Assembly (NCBI GenBank): GCA_023078555.1
Contig: CM041198.1
Span: forward strand, 1,080,856-1,144,855
Reading direction: 5' to 3'
Length of the DNA: 64,000 bases
Origin: Ulva prolifera
Lineage: Eukaryota; Chlorophyta; Ulvophyceae; Ulvales; Ulvaceae
Made by a program: the position numbers and the translations under genes
Notes under the pieces: model-generated
Told to the model about the DNA's origin: nothing
The model's input: the letters and a program-made list of their open reading frames with translations, nothing else
Database searches by the model: none
Part shown: positions 14,251 to 57,540 of the stretch, piece after piece
How positions within the stretch are numbered: position 1 is the first letter of the stretch
Layout of the letters: the number at the start of each line of letters is the position of its first letter

Positions 14251-17200
14251 ATGTCTAACAGAATAGATCTGCGCCACGCCGAGGGGCTAGATTCCGGCCT
14301 GCATGGGCAATCGGCGACAGGCAGCACTCGATCCAGACAGTGGGTCGATGGTGCCCCAGCTGAGCAGGAAAGTGCCGGAAAGGGGAAGTCATCAGAAATC
14401 ACTGATTTAGAAACTTATTTCTTCGAGAAGCACGAGCGGAAGAACTGGAATCTCGCGTTTTCCGACAGACCGGTGCGGCTGCACTTACAGCTTGAATGCA
14501 CATGACGTGGGCCCTACTAGCAGCAGACAACGCAGGCACATATCATCGATTCAAGCCTACTTGCGCATGCAGGGAGGTTGGAGCATACGCGTCAATCCTG
14601 TGTCATTTGGCGCATCCGTTGTCCTTATTTGGGGCTTTGCGGTGCGTAGCGCTCCACACTAGCCCAAAACCCCACAGCGACGCTTCAGCGCATGCCTCGA
14701 CTGCTGTCCTGGCCAGGTGCTATTGTCAGCATGAACGCAGCAGTTCTGATCCGGCCCTGCATTCTGGAGCCTACGTACATGCATGAGCTCGAGGCCAGGC
14801 CGTCATCACAATCCAACATGTGGTGGCCAACAGAAGCTGACCCACATCACAGACAACTTGTTGCAAGGCGCCACATCAGGCTGCACACCTGCTCCTAGCC
14901 CGTCTGAGGATCATGCGGCCAACTGTCCATGCCTCACGGACACATGTGGCAATGGAAGTGTCTGTGCCTGCTGCCTCAACTATGGCCACCACTGCAAAGC
15001 GACATCAAAACTTGCACCTGTTTCGTTTTTAAAGGCTCTCCTAAGAATGCAGATCTGTGCCGTGCAGATCTGGTGCATGATTGTCCCCGGTTCGGCCAAT
15101 GAGAGGCTGTCTGATGTGAAGCGGTGGATCACTTTCACCTTCACATGGGCGTACATGCTCACCCAGGCATGCCTCTCTTGACATCTATCAGCTACATCTC
15201 TCTCCTCGCAGTGGCCAGAGCCTCCCAGGCCTCTATCTCCTTGCAGCTGGGCACTAGTACACGAGCTTGGTAAAGCTGTGCCCGGAGGCTGCCAGCGCGC
15301 TCCGGACATTGCGGCTACCGGCCGGCTCGTACGTAGATATCTGCACCCGTCTCCTCACACTGAGGGGCCCGAGGTATCTGAGGCCAATGCCCTGGCGGGC
15401 ACCATGCATTTGAATCCACATGCACTCATTCCCGTTTGTATCCTTCTCAGCCCAGACTGCACCTCCACCCGACGTGCCGGAACTCACTGCTGGTCCCCCC
15501 GCACTCTGCGTCCCTCGAGTGAGAGAGATCATATGACCATGCATGCAGCGCATGCAATTTGTTGACTTTGTCCTGGAGAGGGTATGACATGCGTGCATGT
15601 GTGCAGCAAGGCTGGGTGGTCTTCCTGCTGGTGCTGTACTTCTCGCGCCTAGGCAGCCTGAAGCTCGGACGCCCCCACGACCAGCCCGAGTTCCCCACAG
15701 CCTCCTGGTTCATGATGGTGCGCACATCCCCCCCCACTCAACCACAGCCTCCGCATGCCTGACGCACCATCCAACGTGACGGCATTTGACGATACATGTC
15801 TGCGTGCGACGGCGTCTGCTGTTCAACACAGGCCTGCCTTCACGGAGCACAGCCCTTGGGGGTTCGAACCGACGTCGCCGTGGAACGTCGGGAAGACGCA
15901 GCGCATGCATGCAGATGTTCTCGGCAGGGATCGGCATCGGCCTCTTTTTCTTCGGCGTCGCCGAGCCGGTGTTCCACTACGAGCCGTGTGGGGCAGAGCC
16001 GCAGGCGGGCCCTGGCTCGGAGTGCTACGGCAACCGCTACGCGCAGCTCCACGCCGACGAGCGCGCGCAGTGGGCGATGAACCTCGCGTTCTTCCACTGG
16101 GGCATTCACGGCTGGGTCGCGTATTGCATCGTCGGCCTCATCCTCGCGACGGTGGTGTACCGCCGGTGCGCCGCGCCCTCTGCCCATGCATTCTGATGCC
16201 CCCAACACCACTACGGATGCCGTCGTCCGTGACGGTGCGCTGCAGGAGCAGCAGCCGCCCGCCCCTTAACCACCTTGGCCACTGCCCTCACGGCTCCGCG
16301 GGGCAGCACCCCGGCCCTTGCATCCAGCACCCCCGGCATTCGCAGCACGCATCACGCAGCACGCAGCACGTGCCATGCAGCACGTAGCACGCAGCAGGTA
16401 GCACACAGCATGCAAGCTACATGCTGATCGTGATGTTGCGCCCGTCCGCAGGGACCTGCCGATGACCCTGAAGTCGGCGTTCCACCCGATCATCGGCGAC
16501 AAGATCTTTGGCTGGATGGGCGACACGCTGGACATCATCTCCGTCGCGACGACCCTCTTTGGCGTCTGCACGTCCCTTGGCCTTGGCGCGAAACAGCTCA
16601 ACGCCGGCTTCGCGCGCCTCAACCCCGCCATCGGCGTCACGACGACCGTGCAGAGCGTCATCATCTGGGCGGTGACGGCCCTCGCGACGGCGTCCGTCGT
16701 TTCGGGCATCCGCGTCGGCATCCGCCGCATCTCGGAAGTGAACTTCATCATCGGCCAGTTCCTGTTGCTGGTGGTGTTTTTCCAGGAGGACAGCTGGTAC
16801 CTGCTCAACAACTTCACGCAGTCGGTCGCGTTCTACGTCCAGGTGCGCCGGCTCCATGCATGTGACACGACGGGAATGTGTTGCAGAGGGGGCCGCCACG
16901 CATGCGTGCACCTGCTGCATACACCACCTCTGCAGACTTGTACATGCATGTAGCTGCAGAAACCAGATCAGTCTTGCTGGCCCACCACATGCACGCGCCA
17001 TCCCTGCAACAAGGCGGTAGCAGCCAAAGGCTTGGTCGGACCCTTAAGGTGGCTCTGCATGTTTGCAGTACTTTGCACAGCTCGGATCCCACAGCGATAC
17101 CTTCCAGATGGCCCCCGCCGGTGCGTCGCCCCATCACCATGAATGCATGCTGCTGCGCCACACGACACATGCCGTTTCTCTCTCCCCGGATCTCCAATGC

Positions 17201-19442
17201 TGACAGCCCGCAGCTCCAGCACGCCGCATTCACAGAGCAACCCAGCGCATCGCACTCCCACGCTCCCGCCGCTGCCCGCAAACCTCGCACCGCCGCGTGC
17301 AGAAACTCTCAGCAACGCAGACGGTGACCCCGTGCACGTCACGGCTCTCGCACCGAATGGCACTGCCGCCGACCGCAACTGGATGGACAGCAACACGCTC
17401 TTCTACTTCTCCTGGTGGATCGCGTGGTCCCCCTTTGTCGGCATGTTCATCGCCAAGATCTCGCGCGGCCGCACCGTGCGCGAAGTCATCAACGGGGCCC
17501 TCACCGCGCCCGTCATCTACTGTTTCATCTGGTTCACGGTGTTTGGCGGCGTCGGGCTGCGCATCGAAAGGCAGGCGGCCAACCTCGGCATCACCTGCGC
17601 CACAGATGACAACGGCTCGGCCATTTTCCAGCAGATGGTCGGAGAGGAGCGTGCGCGGCCCCTGCCGTACCCTATGATCGAGCTCGAGGGGCGGGAGTTC
17701 TGGCGCCTCGCGTGCCGCAGCCCGACGGAGCAGTGGTTTGACATGTTTGCGAACTTCCCAATGACCAAGTGCGAGCCTCCGCCGCTGTAGGCGTGTCCCA
17801 GCGTTCCATATGCTGCGTAGCCTGGCAGATGACGCAGCCCCGAGACGGGCAGCGGTACGGGCAGGGGGCCCGTGTCTGGGCGCTGGGGCCTGCTCTATCA
17901 GTTGCATTGGCCACGCCGGTGCCGGGCATACCCTGCTTGTTGCGGACGCGCCAGCTCAGTGGGCGGCCGGTTCAGCGCGGTATCACCGCGGATTGCTGGC
18001 CCTCAGGTGGTGAAGCTGTCATCTGGTTAGATGCCAACATAGATATCATTGTGGCATCTAAGGTTATGCTTATTCTGTACCATCATTTTGGGACAACGCC
18101 TGTAGAGTTGCCCCAGTCAGCCCAGTCACTGCGGGGCCCCGGCACCCAGGCGCGTCGCATCAATACCTATATGTCCAGGTAAAGCTGCGAATCTCCCAGT
18201 GCATACGGACCGCCGCCGCTGCTGCAGGTTCTACTGGGGCCTATCTCTTGCGTCCCTGATGCTCTACTTCGTCACCTCCTCCGACTCCGGCTCGCTCGTC
18301 ATCGACTGCCTCACCGCCAACGGCAACCCCCACCCGCCCGTGCTCCAGCGCATCTTCTGGTCCGTCACCGAGGGCGCCGTTGCGATGGCGCTGCTCAAGG
18401 CCGGCGGCACCGACGGCCTCCAGGCCCTCCAGGCGGTGTCAATCATCGCCGGCCTGCCCTACACCGTCGTCGTCTGCTTCATGTGTAAAGCGCTATGGGA
18501 AGTCCTCAGCGAGGAGTACGATAGCGTGCATAGCCTGAACCGCCACGTGTTTGAGGACTGGGCGACCGGGCTGCTCGACGCTCTGGACTACCCGACGTTC
18601 TCGTCGCAGCAGGCGATCAAAACTGCGGCCGCGGTGGCGGCGCCGTTCTACTACGCCGCCCGCGGCGCCGCGTGGGCGGACGGGGTCAGTGTGGAGTACT
18701 ACGTCGGCGTGTACGGCCTGCTCTTCGGGGCGTGGGTGCTGCTGCTGGTGCTCAACGTCGCAGCGCCCGGCCTGTGGGCGGTCGCGTGGACACTCTTCCT
18801 CGCGTTCACGTTGCACATGGCGCACGAGCGGCACAACATGCGCAACATCCGGGTGCGCACCGAGCTGTGCATGCTACATGCTGTGTATAATTCGTACTGC
18901 GTGCTGGGCATGATGCATGGGCGGTGTGTTGCGGATGCCAGATGTCGCGCATGTTTGCCATGCATGTGTGCACGCGGCGGCGCAGGGGGTAATTAAGCAT
19001 TTGTCGTGGCGGGCTTCAGCGCTGCAGGCCACAATGTGCTGTGCTGTGCTGCGTTGTAGTGCTGCCCCCTCCAGGTAGATCACATAGAACTGCTCAAGCC
19101 GGCAGGTACAGCTATCAAGCAACGGTCCCCCCTCCCCAGAAACAAGCTTGCTTACTGACCAAACAGGGTACTCCTGTGCAGAATATCAAGGGCAACGTCA
19201 TCAACGATGTGATGCTGTCCGTCATACTGTACCCGCTCGTCGCGGTGCAAATGCATGACGAGGCCCTTGCGGCTCAGAACGAGCGCCCGAACCAGGCACA
19301 GGTCGTGACGGCGCCGCCGCCAGCCGCCGCCGCAGTCGCAGCAGCCCGGCCCTCCCGCGAGGATGAGTTCTCATTCCCAGGCCCACCTGGGGCACGCAAT
19401 TTCTCGGCCGTCTACGTGCAACGCCCGGCGGGGCCTCGGTGA
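14251..19442 (+). CDS. BCCT-family transporter A (betaine/choline/carnitine type)
   Basis: Ten exons give 848 residues: 14251..14472, 14573..14641, 15068..15166, 15607..15717, 15915..16165, 16452..16842, 17069..17120, 17303..17768, 18228..18852, 19182..19442. BCCT carriers have twelve membrane helices in the LeuT fold and import quaternary ammonium compounds at the plasma membrane, usually with Na+ or H+. TM1 is split over exons 2 and 3. The third-helix motif is SAGIGIGLFFFGVAEP (170-185). Trp229, Trp234 and Tyr237 in HWGIHGWVAY match the aromatic cage of BetP. WWIAWSPFVGMFIAKISRG (436-454) is the family signature, and FVTSSDSGSLVID matches the BetP sodium-site helix. A 74-residue polar N-terminus precedes TM1. 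Intron 3 needs a GC donor. Substrate is not readable from sequence; betaine, choline, carnitine or DMSP are candidates. Confidence 0.95.
15167..15606 (+). other. GC-AG intron in BCCT gene A
   Basis: Exon 3 ends ACCCAG and the next bases are GCATGC, where genes B and C have CAG followed by GTGCGA. Reading on meets a stop within five codons and no GT comes first, so a GC donor is the simplest reading. The acceptor is TGTGTGCAG. Confidence 0.75.
16341..16411 (+). repeat. CAGCACG-type microsatellite in a BCCT A intron
   Basis: An imperfect array of about seven-base units (GCAGCAC and variants ATCACGC, GTAGCAC) fills the middle of the intron between exons 5 and 6. Confidence 0.8.
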
Positions 19443-21335: not shown

Positions 21336-24300
21336 CTATGGCCCACTTCCTTGGCCGGGATGATAGTACTGCCCATATACCGGCGCTTGAGTGGTCCCCG
21401 GTTGCGCCGTGCCCTGCGTGCCAGCCCCCTGGGGCGCTGGTGCCGGCGCGGCTGCCACAAAGTGCTGCGCCGGTAACGGCTGCAAGAACGCCGCAGCGTG
21501 CCGGGCGTGCTGCGCATGCTGGGCGGGCACCGCGTGCTGTGCATGTAGAGCATGCGGCCAGGGCACGGGCTGACCGTGCTGCGGGTGCCGCTGCGCGTGC
21601 TGTGCATGCTGCGGGTACCACCGGGGCTGCTGCGGCGCCTGTGGCTGCGGCGGCTGCGGAGCGGGCACCTTTGGGACGTCCGGGGAGCCGCGGGCGTCCT
21701 CGGTGCGGTGGAGGGCGGCCTGGGCAGCATCAGCGGCGAGGGTAGGCGCGTGTATGTTGCTGGTGCCCTCCTTCAGGGCCGCAACAGCCTCGTCATGCAG
21801 CTGCACTGCGGTGAAGGGGCACAGCAGCACCGACAGCAAGACGTCGCTCACCATCGTGCCATCGATATTCTGCACACGAGCCGGCCCGTACTTTACCCAG
21901 GAAACTGGCACGGCTGCCAGTGTCAGTTCATCCATGCTGAACGAAGTGAATGCGCGCGCCACAGGCAGAGCAGGCTGATCCAGACAGCGTACACGTCTGC
22001 TCGCGGGCATGCACAGCAGACGATAATGCCGGCAGCGCTCCATGCGTGGACGGTTGCTCCCAGCAGGGAAAAGACAGCAACCACGTCGTCCACAACACGC
22101 AGCATGCGGAGCGCACCCTGAGCTGCCGCATGTTGCTGCGCTCGTACGCCAGGTGCAGCGAAAAGGCGATGTACAGCAGCCACGCGACCACCCAGAGCCC
22201 CGGCGCGACCGCGTTGAGCACCAGCAGCCCGACCCACGAGCCAAACAGCATGCCGTACACGAGCACGTACTGCAGCTCCCGCACGCCGTCCGCCCACGCG
22301 GCGCCCTTCGCCGCGTAGAGGAATGGCAGCACAAACGCGGCCGCCGTCTTGCGTGCCTGTTTGGCCGAAAACGTCGGGTAGTCCAGCACGTCGATGATGC
22401 CGGTGACCCAGAGGTTGAACGCCGGGCGCTCGATGTTGTGCACCTGGTCGTATTCCTTGCTGAGGATGTCCCACAGCGCCCAGCACATGAACGAGATGAC
22501 GAGGGCATAGGGCAGGCCGGCGATGATGGAAACCGCCTGGAGGGCTTGGAGGCCGTCGCTGCCGGCAGCTTTGAGCAGCGCCATCGCAACAGCGCCCTCG
22601 GTGGCGGACCAGAAGACGCGTTGCAGGACGGGCGGGTGGGGGTTGCCGTTGGCGGTGAGGCAGTCGATGACGAGCGAGCCGGAGTCGGAGGAGGTGACGA
22701 AGTAGAGGATGAGAGACACGAGTGACAGGCCCCAGTAGAACCTGCGGCAGCGGCGGCGGTGTTAAATTGAGACCGGAGCAGACGGGGGCGTTGCCGGGCG
22801 TTGCAGAGGCGGCATGTATCGGTGGCTTGCTGGTGCGGGGGCAAGTGAATGTGCGGGATAACATCGTCACACATTTGCCTCGCGGTAGCCGCTGCCAGAG
22901 TGAAGTGACGTGAAATTGACATTGACTAGCCACATCCCTGCTGGACCTTGACACCTCGGGGTGATTAGGAGCACATGCCGCAGGGGGAACCGCCGAGTTG
23001 ACTCCGCACAACGGCGGCTCGAACCTGACAGGGAATCTGTTGCCAGTGTTGAGTGCGGTGCTCGTGCACGGCTGCCTCAATATCCCAAAGCACACCCAGC
23101 ATCGAGGCCATGACTTTCAGAAGCAAGGGGTATACTATAGCTTTGCTACCGTCCTCAACCGATCGGACATCGAAGATCGAACGCTCGCAAGACGATGCCA
23201 CCGAGATGCTGGCAGCATCCTGGCTGCGCTGAGAGCCACAGCACACAGCATGCGGCGACCCCACAGGGAACAAAGTCAAACTCTGGCTGTGGACGAACGC
23301 AGGGAAATCGCACTTGGTCATTGGGAAGTTCGCAAACATGTCAAACCACATGTCCGTCTCGTTTCGGCACGAAAGGCGCCAGAACTCCCGCCCGTCCAGC
23401 TCAACCACCGGGTACGGCAGCGATAGCGTCTCACCGTCCACCATCTGCTCAAAGGTCTGCACGCCATCGTCGTCTGTGGCGCAGGTGATGCCGAGGTTCG
23501 CCGCCTGCCTCTCGATGCGCAGCCCGACGCCGCCAAACACCGCAAACCAGATGAAGCAGTAGAGCGCGGGGCCCATGAGGGCCCCGTTGATGACCTGGCG
23601 CACGGTGCGGCCGCGGGATATCTTGGCGATGAACATGCCGACGAAGGGGGACCACGCGATCCACCAGGAGAAGTAGAAGAGCGTGTTGCCCTGGAACCAG
23701 GAGCGCAGTGACGCCTTCTGGTCCGGCGCGACCGCCGTGACGTGCACGCCGTCATCAATGGTCTCTGCATGCAGCACACACAGCGTGAACCCGCTGCCGA
23801 AGGGGAGGGGGGGGGGGGGGGGGGGGGGGGAGGCTGATTCGCTGCTGATCGGTCAGCACTTGTGGTCCTGACCGCAGAGCTCTGGGGATCACATGCATGT
23901 GACCCATGCATGTCGGGCTGTCGCACATCGCGGGAAAAGCCTGCCGTGCAAACGTGCCGCCTCTGTGCATGTGGACCAGAGCATGGGATTTATGTGTTGG
24001 GCTCTGATGTAGCTCCGGCCTGTGCGGCTGTGGCAGGGGCCGCGTGTGGCGAAGGGGGGGGGGGGGGGAGCACCTGCGGGTGCCATCTGGAAAGTGTTGC
24101 AGTGAGAGCCGAGCTGGATAAAGTGCTGCATGCATGCACAGCTCCTGTCAGCCCACCAGAGACACCCCACCATCGCGCGACACGTGTACAGCGGCACCAG
24201 GCACGCCCGCTATACCTCACACCATCACCACACCCCGACACACGCTCTCTCTATGCCATATCCCCTGCACACGCACTCCTCATCCCCACACAACAGCCCC

Positions 24301-27300
24301 GCGCATCCCTAGAGGCGCGCACGAGCACTCGCACCTGCACGTAAAAGCCGATCGACTGCGTGAAGTTGTTGAGCAGGTACCACGTGTCGTCCTGCAGCAG
24401 CACGACCATCATGAGGAACTGGCCCATCACGAAGTTGACCTCCGAGAGGCGGCGGATACCGACGCGCACGCCGGTGATCACGGACAGCGTCGAGATCGCG
24501 GTGATCGTCCAGATGATCGCGCTCTGCACGCGCTCGCTGACGGCGACGTCCGGGTGCAGCCGCTGCAGGCCCTGGTTGATCTGCTGCACCCCGAGACCGA
24601 GGGAGGTGCAGATGCCGAAGAGGGTGGTCGCGACGGACACGACGTCGACCGTGTCGCCCATCCAGCCGTAGATCTTGTCCTTGAGGATCGGGTAGAATGC
24701 GGACTTCATCGTCATCGAGAAGCCCCTGCATGGTTGAGCTTGGATCAAGTGGCTGAGCGACGACCCTGCCTGACCTCGCGTGAGCATCGGCTGCTCTTGC
24801 AACGCACACATCAGACGGTCGATTGCAGATCTTGTCTGGCTACATGTGACAGCGATATCATGCACGAACAGGCAGCGCAGGTGCTCACGGTGTGAACCCC
24901 CCGAGCATGGGCATGGGGGCGTGCCTCACCGGAGGGGTCTGGGCAGACAGCGCACTGCCGCCACGGCTGCTGCTGCTGCATGCGCTTGTGTGCATTGACT
25001 CACCATGGCCTGCCAGCCTGTCTAGTACTCCGTACGGCCGCGCCCCGAATAACATACCCCATAGGCACAACACGAGAGCACGACAGCCACGACTCAGTCA
25101 GCGTACCGCTCAAATCGAGCACCGCAAAACACCTCACCCAGCAACTGCTTGTGTATGGTTTACTGGCAACACATTGTGACCAGGGCGCTCATGCAGTCGA
25201 TAAGACACGCGGCCAGCCGCCGCTGCCTCATCACGTGGCCAGAGGGGGCGCACTTGCGGTACACCATGATGCCGAGCAGCAGCCCGACGATGCAGTACGA
25301 AGCCCAGGCGTGGATGCCCCAGTGGAAGAACGACATGTTGATCGCCCACTGCGCGCGCTCATCGTCCTGCAGCTGGGCGTAGCGGTTGCCGTAGCACTGC
25401 GAGCCCTGGCCCGCAGGGGGGTTCGCGCCACAGGGCTCGTAATGGCTCACCGGCTCGGCGACACCAAAGAAGAACAGGCCGATGCCGATCCCCGCCGAGA
25501 ACATCTGTATGCATGGGGCACGGGGGTGTTGCATCGGCTTGTGTCATCGCCAGTGGACAGTACGCTGGTCGGTGCGTCGAACACGCAGCAATTAGCGTGC
25601 ACAGCCGAGTGCGAGCTGTTCCAATGCGATGGCAAAGGAATCTGCTTTGAGGGCAAACAGAGGGGATCAGTGCAGTTGTAGGTCTTGCATTTGGGGTGCC
25701 GGGCGGTGGAGGGATACGACAGCGGCCGGTGAGGCACGGCACCAGAATCGCTCTCGAGATGGCCCCATAGGCAAAGCCTACGCGTGGTGCTGGAGAGTGC
25801 GGTGGTGCGCAGGGGCAGCTGCGGTGGTGAGACTGGCACAGCCAGGCCAGGAGGCTGTGCCTGTGCTTGAATGCGGCTGTGCACAGCAGGCTGCTGTGCC
25901 TGCTGTGCCTGCTGAGCGGCTGTGACAGGGCACAGAAGACATGAGAAGCAGCCGAGGAGGCGTCGCACCATCATGAACCATGACGCGGTCGGGAAGTCAG
26001 GCTCTGAATCGGGCTGGCCAAGCTTCAGGTCGCCTAGGCGGGAGAAGTACAGGACGGTGAGGAAGACCACCCAGCCTTGCTGCACACACCCACACTCTCA
26101 CACAACCTCAATCACGACTCGGCGTTGGTCTGCCATGGAAAGCAGTGCCTGATCGGTGTGTGGTTGCCAGAGGACCGGCTTGCAGCCGGGTCCACAGCAG
26201 TGCGTGCTGTCTAAGCACGGTCACTGTCACCTGATAACTGTCATTCAGAGCTGCACTTGAGCACAGACGACGCCGGCCAATGTCACATGAGGCTACGAGC
26301 TGCATCATATGGGGTTTGTTGCTGACCAGCGCCAGAACGAATCCACTCACAAGCAGCAGAGGCTGCTGAGCCGGACAACAGAGGGGTGACAAGGGGTGAC
26401 ACGGGCGCAACTGGGCATTCAAAGGGCCATGCTGCCAAGTCACCCTGATGGCTGGCTACAAGGCGCAGTTCCACAAGGCACAGTTCCACAATCGGATCCG
26501 AGACACAGCATGGCTCACAAGCACGGGGCAGTCGCACCTGTGCCAGCATGTAGACCCACGAGAAGGTGAAGCTGAGCCAAAGCTGCACGCTTCCAAGCTT
26601 CGCCTTGGCTCCTTCGGGCGACACCATGCACCATATCTGTACGCAGCAGCCACGTTTGCTCCCAAAGTGCCATGAATCTGATTATGTGCCTACCAAAGCG
26701 GTTGGCCAGTGCCTGATCTGAGGGAACATGTGCCACTGCCTGCTAAGGCCCTTCCTGTATTGAGAGCAGCTGCTGCATCGCTGCTGTGCAAAACTGTGGC
26801 AGCTTAGGAATTTGGGTTGCGCCCACGCATGAGAAGCGGATCTTCCTGTATTGAGAACAGCTGCCAGTGTAAGGCAGGTGAATGACAAAGAGGAAGGGCC
26901 GGCCAGTCCAGGCCATGGGGAGTGCAGTACATGCGCTGCCACACAAGGCAGGCACTCTGGAGGTGCCCAGGCGGGCCCAACAGGCCTAAATCATGGTGAC
27001 ACAATCAGGTTGGACTTCAACCCAGGTATCGAGGTGTCATGGACAGAGCCACCGTCATGATTCAGGCATGTGGAGCGGGTACTGCAGATCTGGCAGGGCA
27101 TCAACATCACCACGAATCTGCTGCAGTCGAGCCCTGCGGAGTATTCAGGAGAAACATTTGGAGACATGCTGTTGAAGAGGTCAATGAAGCGGCTGGATCA
27201 TACCGCAAATCCCCAGGTCAAGAGGACTGATGCTCCAAACGATACTGGGTTGACTCGGATTCCCCACTCACGTCCCTGCAAGATCTACCTGCTCTGTGTT

Positions 27301-28593
27301 GGCTGTGTTTTGATTCTCGAGTTGTCAACATGACGGATCCAGGACACTGCAAACGTACAGCAGATGGACGAGCTCCTGTCTACCTGGTGAAGTTTGTCAT
27401 AGGGAAAGAGATGCGTCAGCGGTCACTGCCGTGGCACAGAAGCATGACGAGTTTGACTCAGCTATTGCATTGCTCAAAGCCTTACCACTGCTGCATTCAG
27501 GCACGAGACGACAATATCCAACCAGCTGGCTGACTAGAGGGGTTTAAGAGCTGACGCCAGCCAGATGCACAGCGTGCAACAGAGATTGAATTCCATGGAT
27601 GTCACAAGGCGTGTGTCCTGAGTGTAGCGACGTGGGCAGGCAGATGATTTGTGCAGTCACCTGCACAATCGCACACAACATCATGCAGCTGCATAGCGCT
27701 GGTTTGTCTTCGAGCAGAAGTTTTAGCAGCCACACGCGGTCCTGACACTGCAAATGTGTGTGCAGATGCGTGAGGCACTGCGATGCCGTTGTCGCCTCGG
27801 TAGACTTGGGAACATTAGGCATACTCAGCTCGATAGCTTTGTCCGATTCAGTTTGAGTGACTCGCCTCCTACCGCATACTTGTGATTCAGCAGGTGTTGC
27901 AAGCGCATTTTCGTGTCGACAAGAGCATACCAGTGTGCTGCATGGTGTGCATCATATTGGCATCACATTGGCATCAGCTGGCATGTGATGCACCGGATCG
28001 CCATGAAGTCACGAAGCATTTCTGAAATAACAAGAATTAGGCTTGCATTGCTTTTTAGGTTGACCATGCAGTCTCAGGTGGCCTTCTTCGCCCTGCCAGG
28101 ACCCACTTGACCCTCATACACGTGTCCCCCCACACGTTGAGCGATCTAAAAGTTGGCTTTAAGCAGAAAAACTACTGTACTAAGCCACTGCATATCAACA
28201 TGCATCACATTATCACAGTGATCATCAGTAATTTGTTGTTTCTGTGCAGTAGCGTTCATGAGCGAATTCGGCACGGCAAGCGTTCAGGCACGTCTACTTG
28301 AGGAAACTCACCCATCCCTTGACGGTGTACTGCATATGCCAGTTCAGCTTCTCGTACTGCTCAAAGCAAGCACGCTCGAGGTCTGGTCCCACCGTCGCGC
28401 TGCATTTCAGCACGTCGCTGTAAGCTTCGGCTGCGACATCCCCCGCAGTGCGAGAGTTACAGGCTGCCACGCTGTCAGACGGAAGAGATGCCGGTACAGA
28501 TGAGCGCGCAGCTGCCTCTGATTGGACATGCGATTCATTGAAGGCCCTCATAGAGTTGCCTTGGGGAGTCAAGGCTGGTCTTGCATCATGCAT
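21336..28593 (-). CDS. BCCT-family transporter B, with His/Ala/Gln-rich tail
   Basis: In transcript order the exons are 28593..28312, 27275..27204, 26636..26538, 26079..25969, 25504..25254, 24725..24335, 24125..24074, 23764..23314, 22741..22117 and 21869..21336, giving 955 residues. It is a close paralogue of gene A with every intron at the same place and phase. The cage residues are Trp250, Trp255 and Tyr258 (HWGIHAWASY), and WWIAWSPFVGMFIAKISRG starts at 453. Exon 1 was recognised from ACFEQYEKLNWHMQYTVKGW, the counterpart of YFFEKHERKNWNLAF in A. The C-terminal cytoplasmic tail is long, with His/Ala/Gln repeats (QHAQHAQRHPQHGQ and similar) at about 864-904. In bacterial BCCT carriers the C-terminus senses osmotic stress; whether this tail does is unknown. 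Confidence 0.95.
23807..23830 (+). repeat. 24-base poly-G tract in a BCCT B intron
   Basis: An uninterrupted run of 24 G (poly-C on the coding strand) lies upstream of the acceptor of exon 8, in the intron 24073..23765. Confidence 0.95.
24054..24068 (+). repeat. 15-base poly-G tract beside a BCCT B splice donor
   Basis: On the coding strand this is 15 C starting five bases after the exon 7 boundary, directly behind GTGCT. The same intron has the 24-base tract near its other end. Confidence 0.9.
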
Positions 28594-43500: not shown

Positions 43501-45210
43501 GAAGGGCGGTTTCAGATGGTTTTGTGCTCCCAAGTATCTGGAGTTGTCAAATGTCCGGTATACGCAACAGATATGGTGAAGTAAGTCCAGATTTACCTTA
43601 CTCGAGTTGATGTATCTGCGTTCCTCTATGTCCCAGCAGGGACTCAATCGGAGATGCACTAGCCACTATCATAATGCTGATGCAGCAAACTCGGGCTAGA
43701 TACGCATGCAGTGTACGTTATCAAAGACGCAGGTAGCACCACAGCATCCGCGCAGGATGATGCAGTGTGTGCTGCACACCTGCATGCTGCAGGCATCATA
43801 GCAACCACAGACTAGTCCTAGACATACTCCAGAGAAGCCCACCTGCTCAAAGTTCAGAGACGCTCGCAGGTCCTCCAACTTGGTCATGTCAGCCAGCACC
43901 TCAGACACAAACTTCACCTGATCCAGCGCCGCGCAGCCGATGATATCGAGCTGTTGCAGCAGACCAAGCTGATTTGGCGATTCTGGCAGCTGAGATATCA
44001 GCAGAGGCCTGTGCTTGTGGTAGCTGAGCCCTATCAGCTTCTGCGTTTCCTCCTGCGCTGGTCCACCTGCCGCACTATTTTCGCCGGGCGGCCGTACGGC
44101 TCGGAACTGGAGCTTCGGGCATGGGCTGTTGCTGTGCTCATAGCCAAACTTCTGCAAGGACACGGGCAGGACAAGGCCGATATCCCCGCCACTGCCGCCT
44201 GTTGGCATACCCGCGGATGGATCATGAGACACCATTTGCCTCAAGGCTGACACTGAGCCCACCACCAGCTGCCGCAGCGCTGTGTGCCGCGCATCAATGC
44301 TGACCGAAAGCGCACTGCAGTTGCGCACCACGCAGAGCTCAAGCTTCGGGAGGGCGACCTGCGACAGCTCCAGGTCTACCGATAGTTTCGGGCAGGACCG
44401 CAGGATCAGGCACTGTAGGCTCTCGCTCCTCAGTGAGCCTTCTTGTGAGAAGCTGTGGAACTTTCGGCAGTCATCGAACACAAGCGTGCGAAGGGATGAG
44501 CATCCGGAGAGGTTGCCTGGCCACTCCCGCAGCTGGTCGCAGCTCCCGAAGACCAGCCGCACAAGTCCCGCAAGCATGCTGCCCGGCGCGATTGCTGTGT
44601 AGAGCTTTAGGAACACCTCTGGAGGCGGACACGACACGACCGCGATCTGCTTCACGCCCAGGTGGCTCTCATGTAAAGCATCAGCTGCGTTGCGGTCCGT
44701 GAACAGCAGGCAGCCTGCGAAGCGGCCAGGGTCGTTGACGCTGTCGTCGATGTCTGCTGTTGCGGCGGGACCGAACGTGCACTGGGGGTGATATACGTGC
44801 TCATGGTGCAGAAAGTCTGGGGCATGCTGAATGTGCGCCCTCAGGTTGCAGACAACACAGATCTCCTCTTCGTCGCTGGAGAACGGCATCTGTGAAGTAC
44901 AGTGAAGTGGATCTGATTCTACTGAGCCGTATCCTAAAGACGACATTGACAACGGCATCTGTGTGCTCTGACCATGTCCCGAGAGGTCCTGTGGGGCGGG
45001 CGCAGCTGCTTCAGGCGCCTCTGGGTCGGGTTCTTCCGGATCGGGCTCCGGTTGGGTTTCATCTGTCGGCGGGTCCGCCCGCCCGCTGCTGCTTCTGCGG
45101 CAACAGTGACACCAGCTAAGCGCGGCGCCATTGCTGTCACCTGGATTCCCCGCACCACCAAGCTCTAGATCAGGCCCTTCATCTGGATGCACTGGCTTCA
45201 TCTGGCACAT
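37504..45210 (-). CDS. LRR-transmembrane-USP fusion deubiquitinase
   Basis: In transcript order the supported exons are 45210..43843 and 43111 to about 40470-40255, then segments near 39.96-39.64, 39.58-39.44 and 38.7 kb (ending 38442), then 38169..37903 and 37776..37504; middle borders are unresolved. Exon 1 holds leucine-rich repeats (residues 180-456). Exon 2 continues the LRRs (to about 610), then about six membrane segments (746-1030), a repeated linker, and the USP Cys box GLTNLGNTCYMNSVLQCL with catalytic Cys1249 (codon 40735..40733) and QQHDANEF. Later segments give zinc-type CARC and CSGC pairs, NVLIIYLQRF, and the His box SGHYTAYC (His codon 37677..37675) with WYKYNDRTVTP. USP enzymes remove ubiquitin, and all catalytic boxes are present. 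A membrane-bound LRR deubiquitinase is the reading. Exons upstream of 45210 are possible. Confidence 0.88.
40941..41177 (-). repeat. Tandem duplication in the USP gene linker
   Basis: Two in-frame units of about 114-126 bp encode HGxSGKSPRTNGEDQ, then a short variable stretch, then PTGRPGGDQHAYE. One unit carries four extra codons (CDVE). The duplication sits between the membrane domain and the USP domain (residues about 1101-1180). Confidence 0.9.
43282..43385 (-). repeat. Inverted repeat / hairpin in a USP gene intron
   Basis: Two 47-base arms, 43282..43328 and 43339..43385, flank a 10-base loop. The inner 22 bases pair perfectly and about five of the outer 25 differ. On the minus strand, which is the sense of the host intron (43842..43112), two of those differences become G-U wobbles. 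The fold suggests an intronic small-RNA precursor or a small foldback transposon. Confidence 0.85.
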
Positions 45211-46572
45211 GCATCACTTCAGCATCTGCATGGCCACAGCAGGAGATCAGCTGGACCAGTGCTCCTCCGGGAAAGAACTGGGGTGAACGAGACGATTGAT
45301 GCTCAGCGCAGGCAGAGGCTGCTGGTCTGAGCAATCCTGTAGAAGGTGTCACAGATCATGCATACATACAGTCAGGTAGCATGCCCGGCCTCTGTCCGTA
45401 TTAACTACATACAGGTAGGGCTGTGGTGCGAGCTCGTGCCCGGCGTAAGGCCATCAATGCGTAAGTAGGTTTGGGAATGGACTCCGTGACCGGTGGCATG
45501 CCCGGCCTCTGTCCTCTGTAACTACATGCATGCATGTACGTCTGCATGCGTGCTTCCCGCTGCGATGAGGGTGAGCCAAGTGAGGGCGGGCTGCACGGGG
45601 GGAGGCGCGAAGACACGGTGTGCCAGGCAGTGCACACTTTCGCCGATGCAGCAAGCCAACCACGAGATCTGACGAGGCTAGGTTGACCCAGCCCAGTGCG
45701 AGGAAACATCTCTGTCTGCATACATGCTTGCAGCCGGGCCAATCGATGTTGTCAATGCCATGGTTCGGCAGCGTGGTGGGTGGGCTCTGCTCAAACCACA
45801 GTGTGCGATGCGCGTGCGCAGCAGTGTTCATCGGGCCCGAACACATAGAACAACTCCGAACATTCACATCTAATTTCGGGGTGACAGCCCTGGAAATGCT
45901 GCAAAGCGACCCAACACTGGTGCGCAGCCCGCTTCAGAATTGGGCATGCCCAAATCAGCATACCCAACTCAATGTTTGTAATTGTGCGTGTGGAAGGATC
46001 ATGGTCCTCATCGTCTGTCTGTGTTTTGGGGGGCATGTGTCATCACGCTTGAGTATGACCACATCCAGACCCCACGAATAGAACAGGCCTTCCAATCGGG
46101 CATAAATCTATGCACCAGCTCGGCTACACACGTTTGAGGGGCACCGTAGGGGCAACAGCATAAGCTACCCACGGCGTAGACACATCTTCAACATGGCTCC
46201 TATCTATCTTTCTCCTACCCCCTTCATCAAGGAGCATGACACCTGGGCAGCGACAGCATCCTGAGCCGAAGTGTACACGCCGCCAAGAAGCAACTCCCCA
46301 CACCACAGCTGCTAGCCTGCCATGATCCTTGCCAGGATCAAGTTACGACATGTTACACCATGGCGCCTAGGCTGGCAGCTGCTGCTGCCACCACGCTGCA
46401 GCACCTGCTGCTGCATGCCCACCCCTCAATTGCTGCCATAAGCAAGCATCGACTTTGGTGACAATGGTGTGGAATGAGGTTACCGGCACTACATTTTGGG
46501 CGCCAGAGCAGTGCTTTCGATCGATGTACGTATCAAGAATGTCATTTTATGAACTGAAAGCAGCAGACTCTG
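45211..46572. other. 5' flank of the USP gene, no further gene recognised
   Basis: The stretch contains the duplicated segment 45375..45538 and a 153-codon frame at 45620..46081 (+) without recognisable similarity. The USP promoter should lie here. Confidence 0.4.
45375..45538 (+). repeat. Direct repeat, two copies of about 45 bp
   Basis: Copies at 45375..45417 and 45492..45538 share GCATGCCCGGCCTCTGTCC followed by a TAACTACAT segment. Confidence 0.85.
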
Positions 46573-46613: not shown

Positions 46614-46814
46614 GGGGGGTCTGCACTCGGGCCATGCACACGTCCACCGGGAACGCGAGCCACTCAGACCTCGCCCAGGGCCCTAGGCGGTGTGTATAGA
46701 ATCACAATAACACACTGAATACACACAGGCGGTCCCTGGGCGAAACGTAGAAAGGTGCCCAGGGAAAGGCCTGTTTTCGCCCCAAATGCCGATTTCAGCG
46801 CACGCCCAGTGAGC
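46614..46814 (-). repeat. Dispersed repeat, copy 1
   Basis: The reverse complement of this stretch matches 48231..48477 in segments: CTCACTGGGCGTGC, CCGCCTGTGTG, GTTATTGTGA, the GCCCAGGGCCC palindrome region, and GCGTTCCCGGTGGACGTG. On the minus strand, a frame leaving the element reads LAFPVDVCMARVQTPLF and ends at a stop codon at 46575..46573, so the repeat may have picked up or contributed a terminal exon. The repeat family is unknown. Confidence 0.8.
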
Positions 46815-48230: not shown

Positions 48231-48477
48231 CTCACTGGGCGTGCTCTGGGCACGCGCTGGGCGCTGTAGGCGCTCCCTGGGCGAAATGGGTCATTCTGCC
48301 CAGGCATGCACACGCTTTTCGACGAAAAGACTGCTTTCGCCCAGCGACGTGAGACGACCGCCTGTGTGCATTCAGTATGTTATTGTGAGTCCATAGACAC
48401 CGCCCAGGGCCCTGGGCGATGTCTGAGTGGCTAGCGTTCCCGGTGGACGTGTGCATGTCCCGAGTGCAGACCCCCCT
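48231..48477 (+). repeat. Dispersed repeat, copy 2 (inverted relative to copy 1)
   Basis: Homologous to copy 1 in opposite orientation. It holds several CCCTGGGC/GCCCAGGG motifs and a perfect 18-bp palindrome at 48401..48418 (CGCCCAGGG and its complement), which has one change in copy 1. The extra length compared with copy 1 is in the middle. Confidence 0.8.
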
Positions 48478-51400: not shown

Positions 51401-51716
51401 GACACATCCACAAGGGAAGCTCAGCGCCAGTAGCGGTTGATACCTTAAGTATCTGTGGAAAGTCAGGATGGGTCAATACACCCAGGCACAGACATACATC
51501 AACAAAAAAAACTCACACAGACAGGGAACACAGCCAGCATGCGACACATCAACTGGCAGGCAACCAGGTTGTTTCTAACATTAAGAAATCGTGACATCAC
51601 AGACACAGCAGCAGTGGTTGGCACTGGGTGCTGCCTGGCACCTAGACGGATGCGGCCACACCCAGCAGCAATGCAGAAGCTACGCCCAGACTCACTCCGA
51701 TGGTTGGATGCAGGGA
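48478..51716. other. Intergenic, no gene recognised
   Basis: The best open frame is 49100..49654 (-, 184 codons), with no family resemblance and no splice support. A segment at 49959..49996 resembles 31535..31573. The end is the 3' flank of BCCT gene C. Confidence 0.35.
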
Positions 51717-54700
51717 TTAGACGATCGCTGGCACCTTGCCTGGCCCATTCCCGTTGAGCGGGCCTTCGTCCACATTCCGCATCTCACTGTCCTCAGCAGC
51801 AGCCTCTGCCTCATCGTGAATTTGCACGACAGCGAGAGGGTACCCGACGATGCCAGCGAGGATGTCGATCAGCATGTTGCCCTCGATGTTCTGCATACCA
51901 AACCAGTCATCCAGTATGATCGTCTACCAACAGCATAAATACAGTCTGATAACTCCTGCCTTGCATCTCACTATAACTTAATTTGGTCCATATCTGTGTC
52001 ACCAGAGGGCTGCATTCTGTTTTTTAAGTAGACTCACGCAGCAATGTAACCAGCTGCACATCTACTTGCCTCGCAGCAATTAGGAAGGATACTCACGCAG
52101 CAATCATCGTCTGCGTAAGCAATGCTAGCGAATGACGTTGAGTGTCAACTATGATACTGCAGCATAACAAGGAGGCATGAAACCGCAAGCAGAGAAGGGA
52201 GCACACCCTCAGCTCGCGGACATGGCTGCGAGTTGCCCCGACCCAGCCCGTGTATCCCAGGTACAGCAGCCACCCGATCACATAGAGCCCAGGCTGCACC
52301 ATGTTGAGGATCAACATCAGGGCCCATCCGTAGAACATGACTGCCCCTACCACCATGAACACCACCTGGTTGCCTTTACTTGCCCATGCCTGAGCCTTGG
52401 AGCTGTACAGGAAAGGAGCAAAGATGGCTAACACGGTCTTGATGACCTGCTTCATGGAGGACGTTGGATGGTCCAGCACATCGAGCAGTCCGACCGCCCA
52501 GCTGTTCTTCACCTCCCGAGCTATACCATGATATTTGTCATGCTCTTCACTGAGTGTCACCCAGATCGAGTAGCACATACATGCGACAACAATGTTGTAC
52601 GGGAGACCCGCGATGATTGACACAGCTTGGAGGGCTTGGAGGCCACTCTGGCCACCGGCCTTGAGCAGAGCGTTTGCAACAGCGCCCTCAGTGACTGACC
52701 AGAAGACACGCTGGATGATGGGTGGGTGGGGGTTGCCATTGGCAGTGAGGCAGTCGATGACGAGCGAGCCGGAATCGGAGGAGGTGACAAAGTAAAGGAC
52801 GAGAGAAGCCATCGAGACGCCCCAGTAGAACCTGCAAGGTGCTGACACTGTGGCCATGTGGCTGCGCAGGGGGATGTATTAGTCAGGCAGTTCCCTCTTT
52901 TATTTTTTGACACCGAAGCATGCAAATATGACAACACGGATCACCGGCCTTCGCATTGCCTCAGGAGCAATGCCATGTGTGCATGTGCTCAACGCAGCCT
53001 GTTCCAACCATGTGAAGCATTACAGGAACAGATCGGCACCTTCAGTGCAACGAGCAAGACACACAAATGACCAATCCAGAGTGATATGAGAGCTGAGTGA
53101 GCACATGCGCTACACCAGTCACCAGGCATGGGCGAGGCTCGGGCTCCGCACTTATGCATCGGGTAGTTCGAGAACAGGTCGAACCACTGGTCCGTGGAGC
53201 CCCGGCACGACAGGCGCCACCACTGCCGCCCCGCCACCTCGACCATCATGTTGTCCTCCTCGCATGTAAGGCCGAAGTTCGCTGCCTGGCGCTCCATCCG
53301 CAGGCCAGCACTGCCGAACATCGCGAACCAGACGAAGGTGTAGAGGGCGGGGCCGAGCAGGGAGCCGAGGATGACCTGGCGCACGGTGCGGCCGCGAGAG
53401 ATCTTGGCGATGAACATGCCGACGAAGGGGGACCACGCGATCCACCAGGCGTAGTAGAAGAGGGTCCATCCAGAGTACCAGGCGCGGTCGGCGGAGGTTC
53501 CATCCGGGGCGACGGAGGTGAAGTGGATGGAGTTGCCGTCCTCAGACACAGTTTCTGTAGTGGCAGGTGAGGAATGAGTCAAGACCAGAGCAACAGAGAA
53601 CCGGAACAAGAAGACAGCACGCAATTGTGAGATGTTTTAACCCACACCGTTTCTCGATGGAGATGTCCACGAGACACAGGCATTGATATGTGTGGTAGAC
53701 AAGTGTCCACACACGCAGTGTTGCTGTGTGTGCTGAAGTCAAGGAAAAGGTATCCAGTATTACAACCTGATATGCACGCAGGTGCCCTGAACCAATCAGC
53801 TGGACTCGGATTCACCAACGGATCATTGATGCAGGAGGAAGGTGGCGCACCAGCAGGGCCCATCTCAAAGGCGTCCGTGTGTGTCCCGAGCCCGATGAAG
53901 TTCTGCAGAAACAGTGGCCACGGCATCAGTTAGTAGCACACACGGCAGACACAGCAGCAATGCGATGGCGGAGCACGGGCACCCACCCCACATTGCTGAG
54001 ATGGTTCGTCAGAGGGGTGCCCTGGAACCAACGCCACACAACCAATGTCCTGATGAAAAAACAGGACACGTCCACATCTATTTGACTTAGAGACACACAA
54101 GAACAGCGTCGTAACAGCTATGGATGTCCTACACACTAGGGAACAGGAGAGTACCTGCATTCTCAACAGGACAAGACCAGCAAGGTAACAAATACGGAGA
54201 TCCTACAAACAGGAAGGAGAGTACCTGCAGGTAGAAGCCGATGGACTGGACGGTGCTGTTGAGCAGGTACCACGTGTCCTCCTGGAACATCATCACCAGC
54301 ATGAGGATCTGGCCGAGGGTAAAGTTGACCTCCGAGATGCGGCGGATGCCCATCTTGACACCAGAGACCACGGAGATCGTCGCCATGAGGGTGATGCACC
54401 AGATGATGACCGTCTGCGTGGTGTCACTGACTGGGATGTCGGGGTTGAGGCGGTTCAGGCCGGCATTGAGCTGCGTGACACCGAGCCCAAGGGATGTGCA
54501 GACGCCGAACAGGGTCGTTGCGACGGAGAGGACATCGATCATGTCGCCGATCCAGCTGTAGATCTTCTCCTTGATGATGGGGTAGAAGGCGGATTTCATC
54601 GTCATTGAGAAGCCTCTGCATGCAGCGGCTTGTGAGTGGGAGCTTGTTTGGTTGAGGCTCAGTGAGGTGGATGACCAGGCTCCCTGGGACGAGGCAGCTG

Positions 54701-57540
54701 CTCGAGACAGTGTAGCACTGTGCAGCCATGATATGTCGCTGAACTTGCACACGAGGGCAGCACTGACTCACACACGGGAGGTGCACTGGGATCATATTCC
54801 TGCTCAGAGGCATCCGAGGCTGTGACAGTCCAGTAACCTGCGACATGCAAGGGTCCAATGGTACAGCAGCCATACTGCTGGATTGCCACAGAGGCATCAA
54901 CACCGGGGGAGACATCACTATGAAAAGTCACTGCAGAAAAGTCACTGCAGAACGTCGTGAATCGCCAACGAGATGTCCCTTCATACAGCGCACTCTGAAT
55001 GCAAGTTTTCACTCGTACTCCAGGCTACACATTCTGGCACCGCAACAGACGGACACTTCCGCCGTCACTTTGCGGACGGCTTCCGCCTGCATAGGATGTG
55101 AATGTAGCGAGACGGACGGCGCACTTGCGGTACACCATCACGCCGAGGCAGATGCCGACGATGCTGTAGCAGCCCCAGGCATGCAGGCCCCAGTGGAAGA
55201 ACGTGGTGTTGATCGCCCACTGGGCACGGTTGTTGTCCGTTAGCTGTGCATATCGGTTGCCAAAGCACTCCGAGCCAGCTCCCGCAAACGGATCTCCATA
55301 GCAAGGCTCATAATGGAAGATGGGCTCAGCAACACCAAAGAAGAAGAGGCCAATTCCGATTCCGGCTGAGAACATCTGCAGGCAAGCCCACAGCACTCGC
55401 AGTTCTGCAGAAAATTGTATGGTGCCCAGATGCATCGACAGGTCGGTACTCTGCTGTACTCTGCTACACGGTGCATGTTGACATGCAACTGGAGCACGTG
55501 CAGATTGCCGTTGCTCTGCAACCTTGTAGTTGGTGCCTGTAGCTGTGCACAGTGATAGCTGTAAACAGACATAGCTGCAAAAGGCCTGCCCTGTGCGCTG
55601 TGATCGCAGCATGCGGTAGAAGATGGTGCAGATGAGATGGAGCGGGTGCACACCATCATGAACCATGAGGCAGTCGGGAAGTCGGGGACATCGTCCGGGT
55701 GGCCAAGCTTGAGGGCACCAAGCTTCGAGCACCCCAGGATGACCAAAAAGAGGACAAAGAGGTTCTGCACACACGGTAACTCAGTCAGGGCATTAGACAA
55801 CATGTGGCCTATGGATTCATGTTAGTAATCGCAGCAAGCTGCACTCACAGGCCTGTTCCTGGCCAGTTCATTTGATTCTGCAAATGAATGCAGCGTAGCA
55901 AATGAGACAGGCACGAGGCAGACCGATCGCACCTGAAGACCCATGATGAACCATGAGAAGGTGAATGTGATCCACAGTTGAACATCCCCAAGCTCTTCGT
56001 TGGCTTTGTCTGGCTGGGCCATGCACCATGACTGCAGCACAGGCACGAACTCAGTCAAGCTGGAGCTGAGGCTGGCCACTAACTTCACTCCACAGTCAGC
56101 TCAATGAACAACATTGATGAGACAGGCATGTTGACTACTGAAAATTACAGCAAGTTGTGAACCCGGAGAGTGTGCATGCCTGAACTACATGGACCAGGCC
56201 TGTTGAAAGTTACAGTGGAATTGGCTTGTCAACAATTATGCTTTAAAATTGATTGCACTACCACAGCTGCAGCACAGAGAACAGCCTGTCGAGAGGGAGA
56301 GCGCACCGCAAAGCCCCAGATGAGGACGACAGAAAACACAAACGACACTGGATTCAGTCGAATGCTCCATCGGCCCTGCATGCCAGAACAGGGCAAGGTG
56401 ACATGTGAGCTTCTCGTGCATGTGAACAAAATTCAGATGAACAAAACTCAAATGATCACACAATGCTGCTCAGATCAATACACAAGCCCCGAAGTCAGAC
56501 CCACTGTACAGTCTATTGATTGCAATTATTTGCTATCGGAGGAGAGCCACGATGCAGTCTACTTTTGATGGGCAGACATCAGCGAATGCTTCAGTTAGCG
56601 GGGCCCGTGATGCGTTGCACTGACCCCAGGAAGGCCGGGCTGGTGGACGACTCAGTCTGGTTGATGGTCCTGACAAAGTTGTGCATCGCAATTCAGATCG
56701 CCACTGCAGTACAATGTCGATTGTTGACCGACACGGTTGTACAACGCTGCAGCGCGCTTGGCCCAGCGCGCTGCAGCGTTCCGATACGTGTCACCCTCTG
56801 ACGCATGCGCGCCACGTGGACAAGCGTGCACAGAAGCGGCACCAAACTCGACGGATCGGGAAGCTTCCGAAAGGCAAGCAAAATGTGTGCACTAGTCGCG
56901 TAAACCTCAATGACAGAGACACTGACCCAGCTCCTTACAAACACAGAACACAGTCATGGGAGACATAGAATTCGGAGCATACATGTCACGGAAATAGAAT
57001 CAGTTGCGCAAGGGATCTGGGGTCAGCGTAGACCACGCAAATTGCAGCCGATGTGTGGCCGATAACGTTGTGACGGACCGTCCCACCTGACCAGTGAATC
57101 GTGATACGCGGGGTTTCGGCAGCGACTGTAATCTCGCAGCTAGCTGCAGAGACGATTCTACCAAGCACAGAACAACGTACCGCAGTGGGGAACAGATGAA
57201 TTGACCAATTCTGAGCCTCGTGACGCTCGAAGAAAACGTACTCCAGATCGGCTCCGACAAGCCCGTCAGTATCGACGTCACTCTTGGACTTGCCATTGGG
57301 AGCTGCACAATGTTTCGTCTCAGGGGAGCACTTCACGCTAACGGCCCAAGCTCCATCAAGTGGATGCAATAATGCATTGCGAAAGGGTACCCTGGCGAAG
57401 CCGAGAGGCACGCACCCTGCTTCAAGTCCCCGTGACCGGAACTCATGCCGACGTCGGCGTGTTCGCCGTGACGATGGACCTGCAACTGCGGACTCGTGAC
57501 AGCGTGGCCGCCGCAGAAGCACTTTCACGTACCACAGCAT
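51717..57540 (-). CDS. BCCT-family transporter C
   Basis: In transcript order the exons are 57540..57181, 56375..56307, 56031..55933, 55764..55654, 55375..55125, 54615..54225, 53902..53851, 53554..53152, 52831..52207 and 51890..51717, giving 844 residues. Intron positions and phases equal those of A and B. The cage is Trp275, Trp280 and Tyr283 (HWGLHAWGCY), and WWIAWSPFVGMFIAKISRG starts at 481. It is the most diverged of the three: the loop after TM8 lacks about 16-21 residues, the helix before TM12 differs, and the C-terminal tail is short (about 57 residues, acidic). The Arg-rich first 70 residues are unlike those of A and B, so the true start could be on another exon. The conserved part of exon 1 is YVFFERHEAQNWSIHLFPTA. 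Confidence 0.93.

What the first reader, a model, noticed from the sequence alone, without database searches (positions are those of the whole stretch)
14251..57540. Three intron-rich eukaryotic BCCT transporter paralogues with one shared ten-exon structure
Genes A, B and C use nine introns at the same positions and phases. Exons 3, 4, 5, 6, 7 and 9 are exactly 99, 111, 251, 391, 52 and 625 bp in all three, and exon 2 is 69, 72 and 69 bp. The BCCT family is known mainly from bacteria and archaea. A shared, elaborate intron pattern implies the gene entered or existed in this lineage long before the duplications, so it is neither contamination nor recent transfer. A local expansion suggests specialised import of betaine-like osmolytes or DMSP.
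Basis: partly seen in the sequence, partly recalled or inferred. Interest (0 to 1): 0.85.

Follow-up and report, generated by a model that had tools for sequence, protein, structure and literature searches.

The report
Seaweed betaine-type transporters with PLAC8-like tail
A sea-lettuce-like green alga carries three old, intron-split genes for bacterial-type osmolyte importers, and these belong to a eukaryotic branch that has an extra membrane module resembling the PLAC8 family, not seen in the bacterial relatives examined, whose role is untested.

Summary
All nine introns lie at the same positions and phases in A, B and C, and the quoted exon lengths are exact. Gene C probably starts at 57446, not 57540, with one more leader intron. 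BCCT matches in this 88.9 Mb genome occur only here. The alga is close to Ulva: A and C have U. mutabilis orthologues at 79% and 81% identity.

These are not recent bacterial imports: they fall with eukaryotic BCCTs, split from bacterial ones with full support. Its profile finds 163 of 165 listed homologues, from green algae to invertebrates, and none of 80 prokaryotic loci. PLAC8's cysteines are lost and scores stay under Pfam's cut-off, but the R-R-D-P-Q-E spacing matches a PLAC8 gene of the same genome. Betaine-box and Na2 residues are kept, so Na+-coupled import of betaine- or DMSP-like solutes is likely. Substrate and tail function are untested. Two searches found no description of the fusion, only a table naming a coral 'Plac8' marker a betaine transporter.

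The parts
14251..19442 (+). Gene A, 10 exons, 848 aa. Exons 14251-14472, 14573-14641, 15068-15166, 15607-15717, 15915-16165, 16452-16842, 17069-17120, 17303-17768, 18228-18852, 19182-19442
   Evidence: start supported by the U. mutabilis orthologue P0001 (MSNR...)
21336..28551 (-). Gene B, 10 exons, 941 aa. Exons 28551-28312, 27275-27204, 26636-26538, 26079-25969, 25504-25254, 24725-24335, 24125-24074, 23764-23314, 22741-22117, 21869-21336; His/Gln/Pro-rich C-terminus
   Evidence: no orthologue to check the start
51717..57446 (-). Exons 57446-57416, 57302-57181, 56375-56307, 56031-55933, 55764-55654, 55375-55125, 54615-54225, 53902-53851, 53554-53152, 52831-52207, 51890-51717
57303..57415 (-). 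Proposed extra leader intron of gene C (113 bp, phase 1)
   Evidence: GTGCGT..TGTGCAG; the joined product resembles the N-terminus of U. mutabilis P0002
15167..15606 (+). A intron 3, the only GC-AG intron of the set
18559..18852 (+). PLAC8-like domain of A, part in exon 9 (residues 665 onward; continues at 19182-19262)
   Evidence: PF04749, residues 665-789 against profile 1-101 of 101, E 2.8e-5; coordinates worked out by hand from the exon table
19182..19262 (+). PLAC8-like domain of A, part in exon 10 (end of the R-R-G-D-P-Q motif)
22117..22410 (-). PLAC8-like domain of B, part in exon 9 (continues at 21869-21789)
   Evidence: 3 of 3 members match PF04749 at E <= 10, no separate ranges shown; coordinates carried over from A by the equal length of exon 9
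52207..52500 (-). PLAC8-like domain of C, part in exon 9 (continues at 51890-51810)
   Evidence: 3 of 3 members match PF04749 at E <= 10, no separate ranges shown; coordinates carried over from A by the equal length of exon 9

Best explanation
Genes A, B and C are functional nuclear paralogues in an Ulva-like green alga. They encode members of a eukaryotic BCCT lineage: a BCCT/LeuT-fold transporter followed by a C-terminal PLAC8-like membrane module. The transporter part most likely works like BetP or DddT, as a Na+-driven importer of betaine- or DMSP-type zwitterions through its aromatic box. The PLAC8-like module stands where bacterial family members have their C-terminal tail, which in BetP is the osmosensing part (recalled), and most likely regulates or anchors the transporter at the membrane. 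Shown by computation: gene structures, orthology, clade, domain, conserved residues. Inferred: transport, substrate, coupling, regulatory role.
Against: A scores 25.4 bits against PLAC8, the best E of the three, below Pfam's gathering score of 34.4; so do all 7 algal, protist or unnamed relatives (E 2e-6 to 0.036). The cysteines are gone. The reverse profile test against the genome's own PLAC8 proteins was weak (10.3 bits, E 30) and hhalign of two small alignments gave 16% probability. The PLAC8 stretches were spliced with the help of the motif itself: the first was picked among 109 donor-acceptor combinations by D17/P26/Q31, though its last exon is matched by PLAC8 profile positions 79-101 independently; the second (10.6 bits) by a looser pattern. 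Five of 50 rows (DUR3, CHT1) reach model residues 778-797, so extra helices of other LeuT-fold transporters may resemble part of the tail. BetP's Na1 residue T250 is Val or Ile here. No expression, localisation or transport data.
Confidence: 0.75

Rival explanations
1. The tail is a eukaryote-specific extra helical region of BCCT that only resembles PLAC8 by convergence; there was no domain fusion.
For: Sub-threshold Pfam scores, loss of the cysteine signature, weak reverse and hhalign tests, alignments of CHT1 and DUR3 reaching into the tail (5 of 50 rows).
Against: Alignment to PF04749 runs over the whole profile (1-101 of 101) in A and P0001; best homologue E 2e-14; identical R1-R5-D17-P26-Q31-E35 spacing with a same-genome PLAC8 gene, not reached by shuffles or background.
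Confidence: 0.12
2. The BCCT genes entered the Ulva lineage by transfer from another eukaryote, and not by descent from an early eukaryotic ancestor.
For: Patchy distribution among the listed named taxa; the Ulva genes do not group with those of Ostreobium, another ulvophyte (AU p 1.5e-39).
Against: With bacteria as outgroup the Ulva clade is the deepest eukaryotic branch and nests in no other named group (82/82 only; unresolved). Differential loss of old paralogues explains the same pattern.
Confidence: 0.35
3. Recent transfer from bacteria, or bacterial contamination in the assembly.
For: BCCT is chiefly a prokaryotic family (general knowledge).
Against: 27 introns with shared positions, orthologues in U. 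mutabilis, a tail not found in 80 prokaryotic loci, one eukaryotic clade.
Confidence: 0.01
4. The substrate is not a betaine-like osmolyte but choline, trimethylamine or another small amine, taken up as nutrient.
For: The closest solved structure is TmaT, a trimethylamine transporter. The position of BetP W371, Trp in 162 of 168 sequences, is Phe in A and B and Tyr in C.
Against: The BetP betaine box (W189, W194, Y197, W374) is complete. Overall fold similarity does not fix the substrate.
Confidence: 0.25

Closest known systems
BetP / DddT / TmaT / BetT (bacterial BCCT transporters)
   Same: PF02028, BCCT/LeuT-type core, aromatic substrate box and Na2 ligands compared with BetP
   Different: C-terminal PLAC8-like membrane module after the core; Na1 residue T250 replaced; structure-based identity 38% to TmaT, 32% to BetP (for the orthologue P0001)
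Eukaryotic BCCTs of corals, copepods, dinoflagellates, cryptophytes and a pelagophyte (PMC12069450, PMC9133084: passages read)
   Same: Same clade and architecture for the cnidarian and copepod members listed here; dinoflagellate, cryptophyte and pelagophyte members were not identified by name
   Different: The Ulva genes form their own branch with F or Y at the W371 position. The passages read do not mention PLAC8
PLAC8 / FW2.2-CNR proteins
   Same: W..GL.D start, hydrophobic segments, R-x3-R ... D ... P-x4-Q-x3-E spacing
   Different: Cysteine-rich signature lost; fused to a transporter; under Pfam's cut-off
MCA1/MCA2 mechanosensitive channels (PMC8049495, PMC8526687: passages read)
   Same: Another plant membrane transport protein that carries a PLAC8 domain
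   Different: Different channel domain. PMC8526687 says that PLAC8 does not appear necessary for channel activity and may modulate it, so it gives no support to PLAC8 as the sensor itself

Membership tests
BCCT (PF02028) | Match over the curated cut-off | tested here: met
   Best E 5.4e-155; A 509.6 bits against 27
BCCT (PF02028) | BCCT/LeuT fold | tested here: met
BCCT (PF02028) | Aromatic box (BetP W189, W194, Y197, W374; recalled) | tested here: met
   All kept in A, B and C
BCCT (PF02028) | Transport of quaternary ammonium or sulfonium solutes | not testable with these tools
   Needs an uptake assay
Na+-coupled BCCT (BetP type) | Na2 ligands T467, S468 (recalled) | tested here: met
   T and S in A, B and C; 165 of 168 sequences each
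Na+-coupled BCCT (BetP type) | Na1 residues T246 and T250 | tested here: not met
   T246 kept; T250 is V, I, V in A, B, C. DddT also lacks this site yet is Na+-coupled (PMC13270143, passages)
PLAC8 (PF04749), canonical | Score over Pfam's gathering cut-off | tested here: not met
   25.4 bits against 34.4 for A, the best of the three; many homologues carry a precomputed PF04749
PLAC8 (PF04749), canonical | Cysteine-rich signature | tested here: not met
   Cysteine positions of the same-genome PLAC8 gene hold hydrophobic residues in A
PLAC8-like (homologous domain) | End-to-end profile match and conserved motif spacing | tested here: met
   Profile 1-101 of 101 in A; 0 of 200,000 shuffles (the splice was chosen with the motif's help)
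Eukaryotic BCCT clade | Groups apart from bacterial BCCTs | tested here: met
   100, 100/100; bacteria were drawn from the 80 best hits only, and rows without a named organism were labelled eukaryotic by similarity

The most novel reading that the evidence does not exclude
A single early fusion of a BCCT osmolyte transporter with a PLAC8 module founded most or all BCCTs of eukaryotes. The module replaced the osmosensory tail of bacterial BCCTs and couples solute import to membrane state. The family was kept in scattered, mostly marine lineages from green seaweeds to corals and copepods, with an old triplet in an Ulva-like alga.
Probability: 0.3. Interest if true: 0.78.

Novelty: new variant of a known kind. 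Interest (0 to 1): 0.6.

Why it matters
How marine eukaryotes take up betaine and DMSP is poorly known at gene level (general knowledge). This gives three concrete, testable genes in a seaweed group with predicted DMSP lyases (PMC10349084, passages), and a domain marker that may help to tell eukaryotic BCCTs from bacterial ones in metagenomes. It also widens the range: animals in the lists include ctenophores, a chiton and a nemertean, which does not fit the remark, quoted in PMC12069450 from Ngugi et al. [quoted passage not shown] If the PLAC8-like module regulates transport, it gives this widespread eukaryotic domain a setting where its effect could be measured directly.

Tried and rejected
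Recent bacterial transfer and contamination: rejected. Viral carriage: 26 stretches of viral contigs matched a pattern, none encodes a relative. More copies elsewhere in the genome: none found. A shared intron position between BCCT intron 9 and the genome's PLAC8 genes: looked at and not found; in the PLAC8 gene the intron lies about eight residues further on, so introns do not trace the fusion. Tail against solved structures by sequence: 0 hits at E <= 10, which does not show a new fold; the tail was barely tested. Exact R1-D17-P26-Q31 spacing was found in 1 of 4 same-genome PLAC8 genes; a looser pattern added a second, which has Ala at position 26; two gave none. hhalign of small alignments was inconclusive. 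The second of the two structure jobs, and a fold of the tail alone, were not run.

Limits: only 120 homologues are listed per search, out of 7,880, 7,723 and 7,838 that passed; together 165 distinct ones. Eukaryotic BCCTs without the tail may exist unseen. Two of the 165 lack the tail and look truncated. For one search, 35 of the 120 homologues then listed were used; ORFs outside 480-760 aa (6 of 80) were dropped and the first 40 of the other 74 used. For one search, 30 homologues and 15 of 80 prokaryotic ORFs were picked by hand; 13 of the 30 have no named organism. Tail columns were probably left out of the first tree and probably present in the second (by the fill limits; not checked). Two of the 80 prokaryotic loci are archaeal by title. 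Ngugi et al. 2020 and the Ulva mutabilis genome paper were not seen (known through citing papers).
Full report
What is in the sequence. Three genes were rebuilt from the raw DNA by searching for exons of the stated length with AG before and a donor after and an open frame with BCCT motifs, taking the candidate homologous in all three genes where several fitted, then placing exons 1, 8 and 10 by homology. Gene A runs 14251-19442 on the + strand, B 28551-21336 and C 57540-51717 on the - strand. 26 of 27 introns are GT-AG and one is GC-AG. Protein identity is 65% (A-B) and 59% (A-C, B-C). dS is 0.72 (A-B), 1.04 (A-C) and 1.00 (B-C); dN is 0.25-0.34; 1 of 27 homologous intron pairs shows any match, short and in A/B intron 5. 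These are old, constrained duplicates.

A correction. The U. mutabilis orthologue of C begins MSSGRPDTGPAG. In C, an ATG at 57446 in another frame gives MSSGHGDLKQ and, after removal of a 113-base intron with standard sites, continues APNGKSKSDVDTDGLVGADLE.

Where it comes from. The window lies in an 88.9 Mb genome of 44 contigs, and all BCCT matches found in it fall in this window. The best relatives are three proteins of Ulva mutabilis named UM033_0146, 0150 and 0151. A matches 0146 at 79%; C matches 0151 at 81% and 0150 at 74%; B has no closer U. mutabilis match than 68%. In the tree B is sister to A plus 0146 (98/97), and C is sister to the pair 0150/0151 (node 100/99). So A/B and C separated before the two species, C was doubled in U. 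mutabilis, and B was lost or not listed there. That the alga is close to Ulva is inferred from these orthologues; no organism marker was tested.

The C-terminal domain. After the core comes a confident helical region (residues 681-800, block pLDDT 87-97; helices 684-695, 697-709, 713-733, 740-766, 772-781, 783-800). Pfam's PLAC8 model aligns end to end with residues 665-789 of A (E 2.8e-5, 25.4 bits) and matches all three proteins, under its gathering score of 34.4. Among 53 homologues 45 match PLAC8 at E <= 0.01, best 2e-14; seven algal, protist or unnamed relatives give E 2e-6 to 0.036, all under the cut-off. A profile made from 53 tails finds 163 of 165 listed homologues, 110 of 112 not used in making it, and nothing in six-frame translations of 80 prokaryotic BCCT loci. 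In 74 prokaryotic BCCT ORFs PF04749 is not among the 25 of 27 families shown; the two not shown should have E of about 0.44 or worse. R759, R763, G770, D775, P784 and Q789 of P0001 are kept in 157-165 of 168 sequences; the rest are gaps or, chiefly at P784, other residues.

Is it really PLAC8? A PLAC8 gene of the same genome, spliced at standard sites, reads [36 protein letters not shown]. Without gaps this puts R, R, D, P, Q and E at positions 1, 5, 17, 26, 31 and 35, the same as in RHNMRNIRNIKGNVINDVMLSVILYPLVAVQMHDEAL of A. Its score against the BCCT tail profile is 23.2 bits; none of 200,000 shuffles and none of 790,402 background 37-mers reach it. A caution: the splice was picked among 109 donor-acceptor combinations by the D17/P26/Q31 spacing itself, though its last exon is matched by PLAC8 profile positions 79-101 on its own. 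Against the reading stand also the sub-threshold Pfam scores, a weak reverse search (10.3 bits), an inconclusive hhalign and the CHT1/DUR3 rows above. I call the domain PLAC8-like and do not file it as canonical PLAC8, because the cysteine signature and the gathering score are not met.

Phylogeny. In a quick tree of 38 eukaryote-labelled and 40 bacterial rows the two groups are separated by one branch (100% SH-aLRT). A careful tree of 33 and 15 rows gives 100/100. Named members with the tail include Ulva, Ostreobium (Ulvophyceae) and Mantoniella (Mamiellophyceae; PLAC8 E 1.9e-4), the chromerid Vitrella, cnidarians, ctenophores, the chiton Liolophura, the nemertean Tubulanus and the copepods Tigriopus and Lepeophtheirus (group names recalled except where a call is given). 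Ulva and Ostreobium do not form a clade (AU p 1.5e-39). That means either old paralogues with losses or transfer between eukaryotes; these data do not decide.

What is known. Eukaryotic BCCTs are in print: passages of PMC12069450 describe copepod BCCTs downregulated in low salinity and cite Ngugi et al. 2020 for corals, dinoflagellates and cryptophytes; PMC9133084 has a pelagophyte BCCT raised at high salinity; PMC2945787 lists a diatom transcript. A search for BCCT with PLAC8 found 0 papers; PLAC8 with 'betaine transporter' found one, a coral cell-line paper whose table lists the epidermis marker Plac8 as a gene annotated 'Glycine betaine transporter OpuD' (PMC8270879, passages). The fusion seems to have been met there without being noted in the passages shown. 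Ulva with BCCT gave 4 papers; I read passages of two, which do not describe an Ulva BCCT gene; the other two I saw only in listings. DMSP lyase homologues are predicted in Ulva (PMC10349084, passages), so DMSP is a reasonable candidate solute.

How it most likely works. Na+-driven import of betaine-like or DMSP-like zwitterions through a BetP-like core, with the PLAC8-like module regulating or anchoring the transporter. The core mechanism is inferred from conserved residues; the role of the tail is a hypothesis. PMC8526687 (passages) says that PLAC8 does not appear necessary for MCA channel activity and may modulate it, which favours a modulatory role over direct sensing.

Noticed in passing
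window 40256-43141 (-): One open frame of 962 aa combines leucine-rich repeats near its start with a partial ubiquitin carboxyl-terminal hydrolase match (UCH, E 4.8e-23, residues 795-910) near its end; hydrophobic stretches between them look like membrane helices by eye.
   Followed up: partly
window 33237-35186 (+) and 43699-45213 (-): Two more long open frames with weak LRR matches, under Pfam's cut-offs, lie between genes B and C.
   Followed up: no
window 830-1204 (+) and 2929-4200 (-): Glyoxalase match and RNase PH-type exoribonuclease matches, ordinary neighbours.
   Followed up: no
window 21336-21700 (-), gene B C-terminus: His/Gln/Pro-rich repetitive extension (QHAQHAQ...) absent from A and C.
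   Followed up: no
A, B and C, position of BetP W371: Trp in 162 of 168 sequences, Phe in A and B, Tyr in C; the other departures are the U. mutabilis proteins (sequences). Could bear on substrate choice.
   Followed up: partly
PMC8270879, gene aten_s0207.g28.t1: The cnidarian epidermis marker 'plac8' is listed there under a betaine transporter annotation; published 'plac8' markers in cnidarians may be BCCT::PLAC8-like transporters.
   Followed up: no
L094 (C1:6493897) and L095 (C25:10469): Two PLAC8 loci on different contigs have the same score and frame length, perhaps a duplicated or haplotype-split region of the assembly.
   Followed up: no
P0003 (U. mutabilis UM033_0150): Second copy of the C type in U. 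mutabilis, 74% to C and 81% to P0002, on a longer branch than P0002 (0.14 against 0.063).
   Followed up: no
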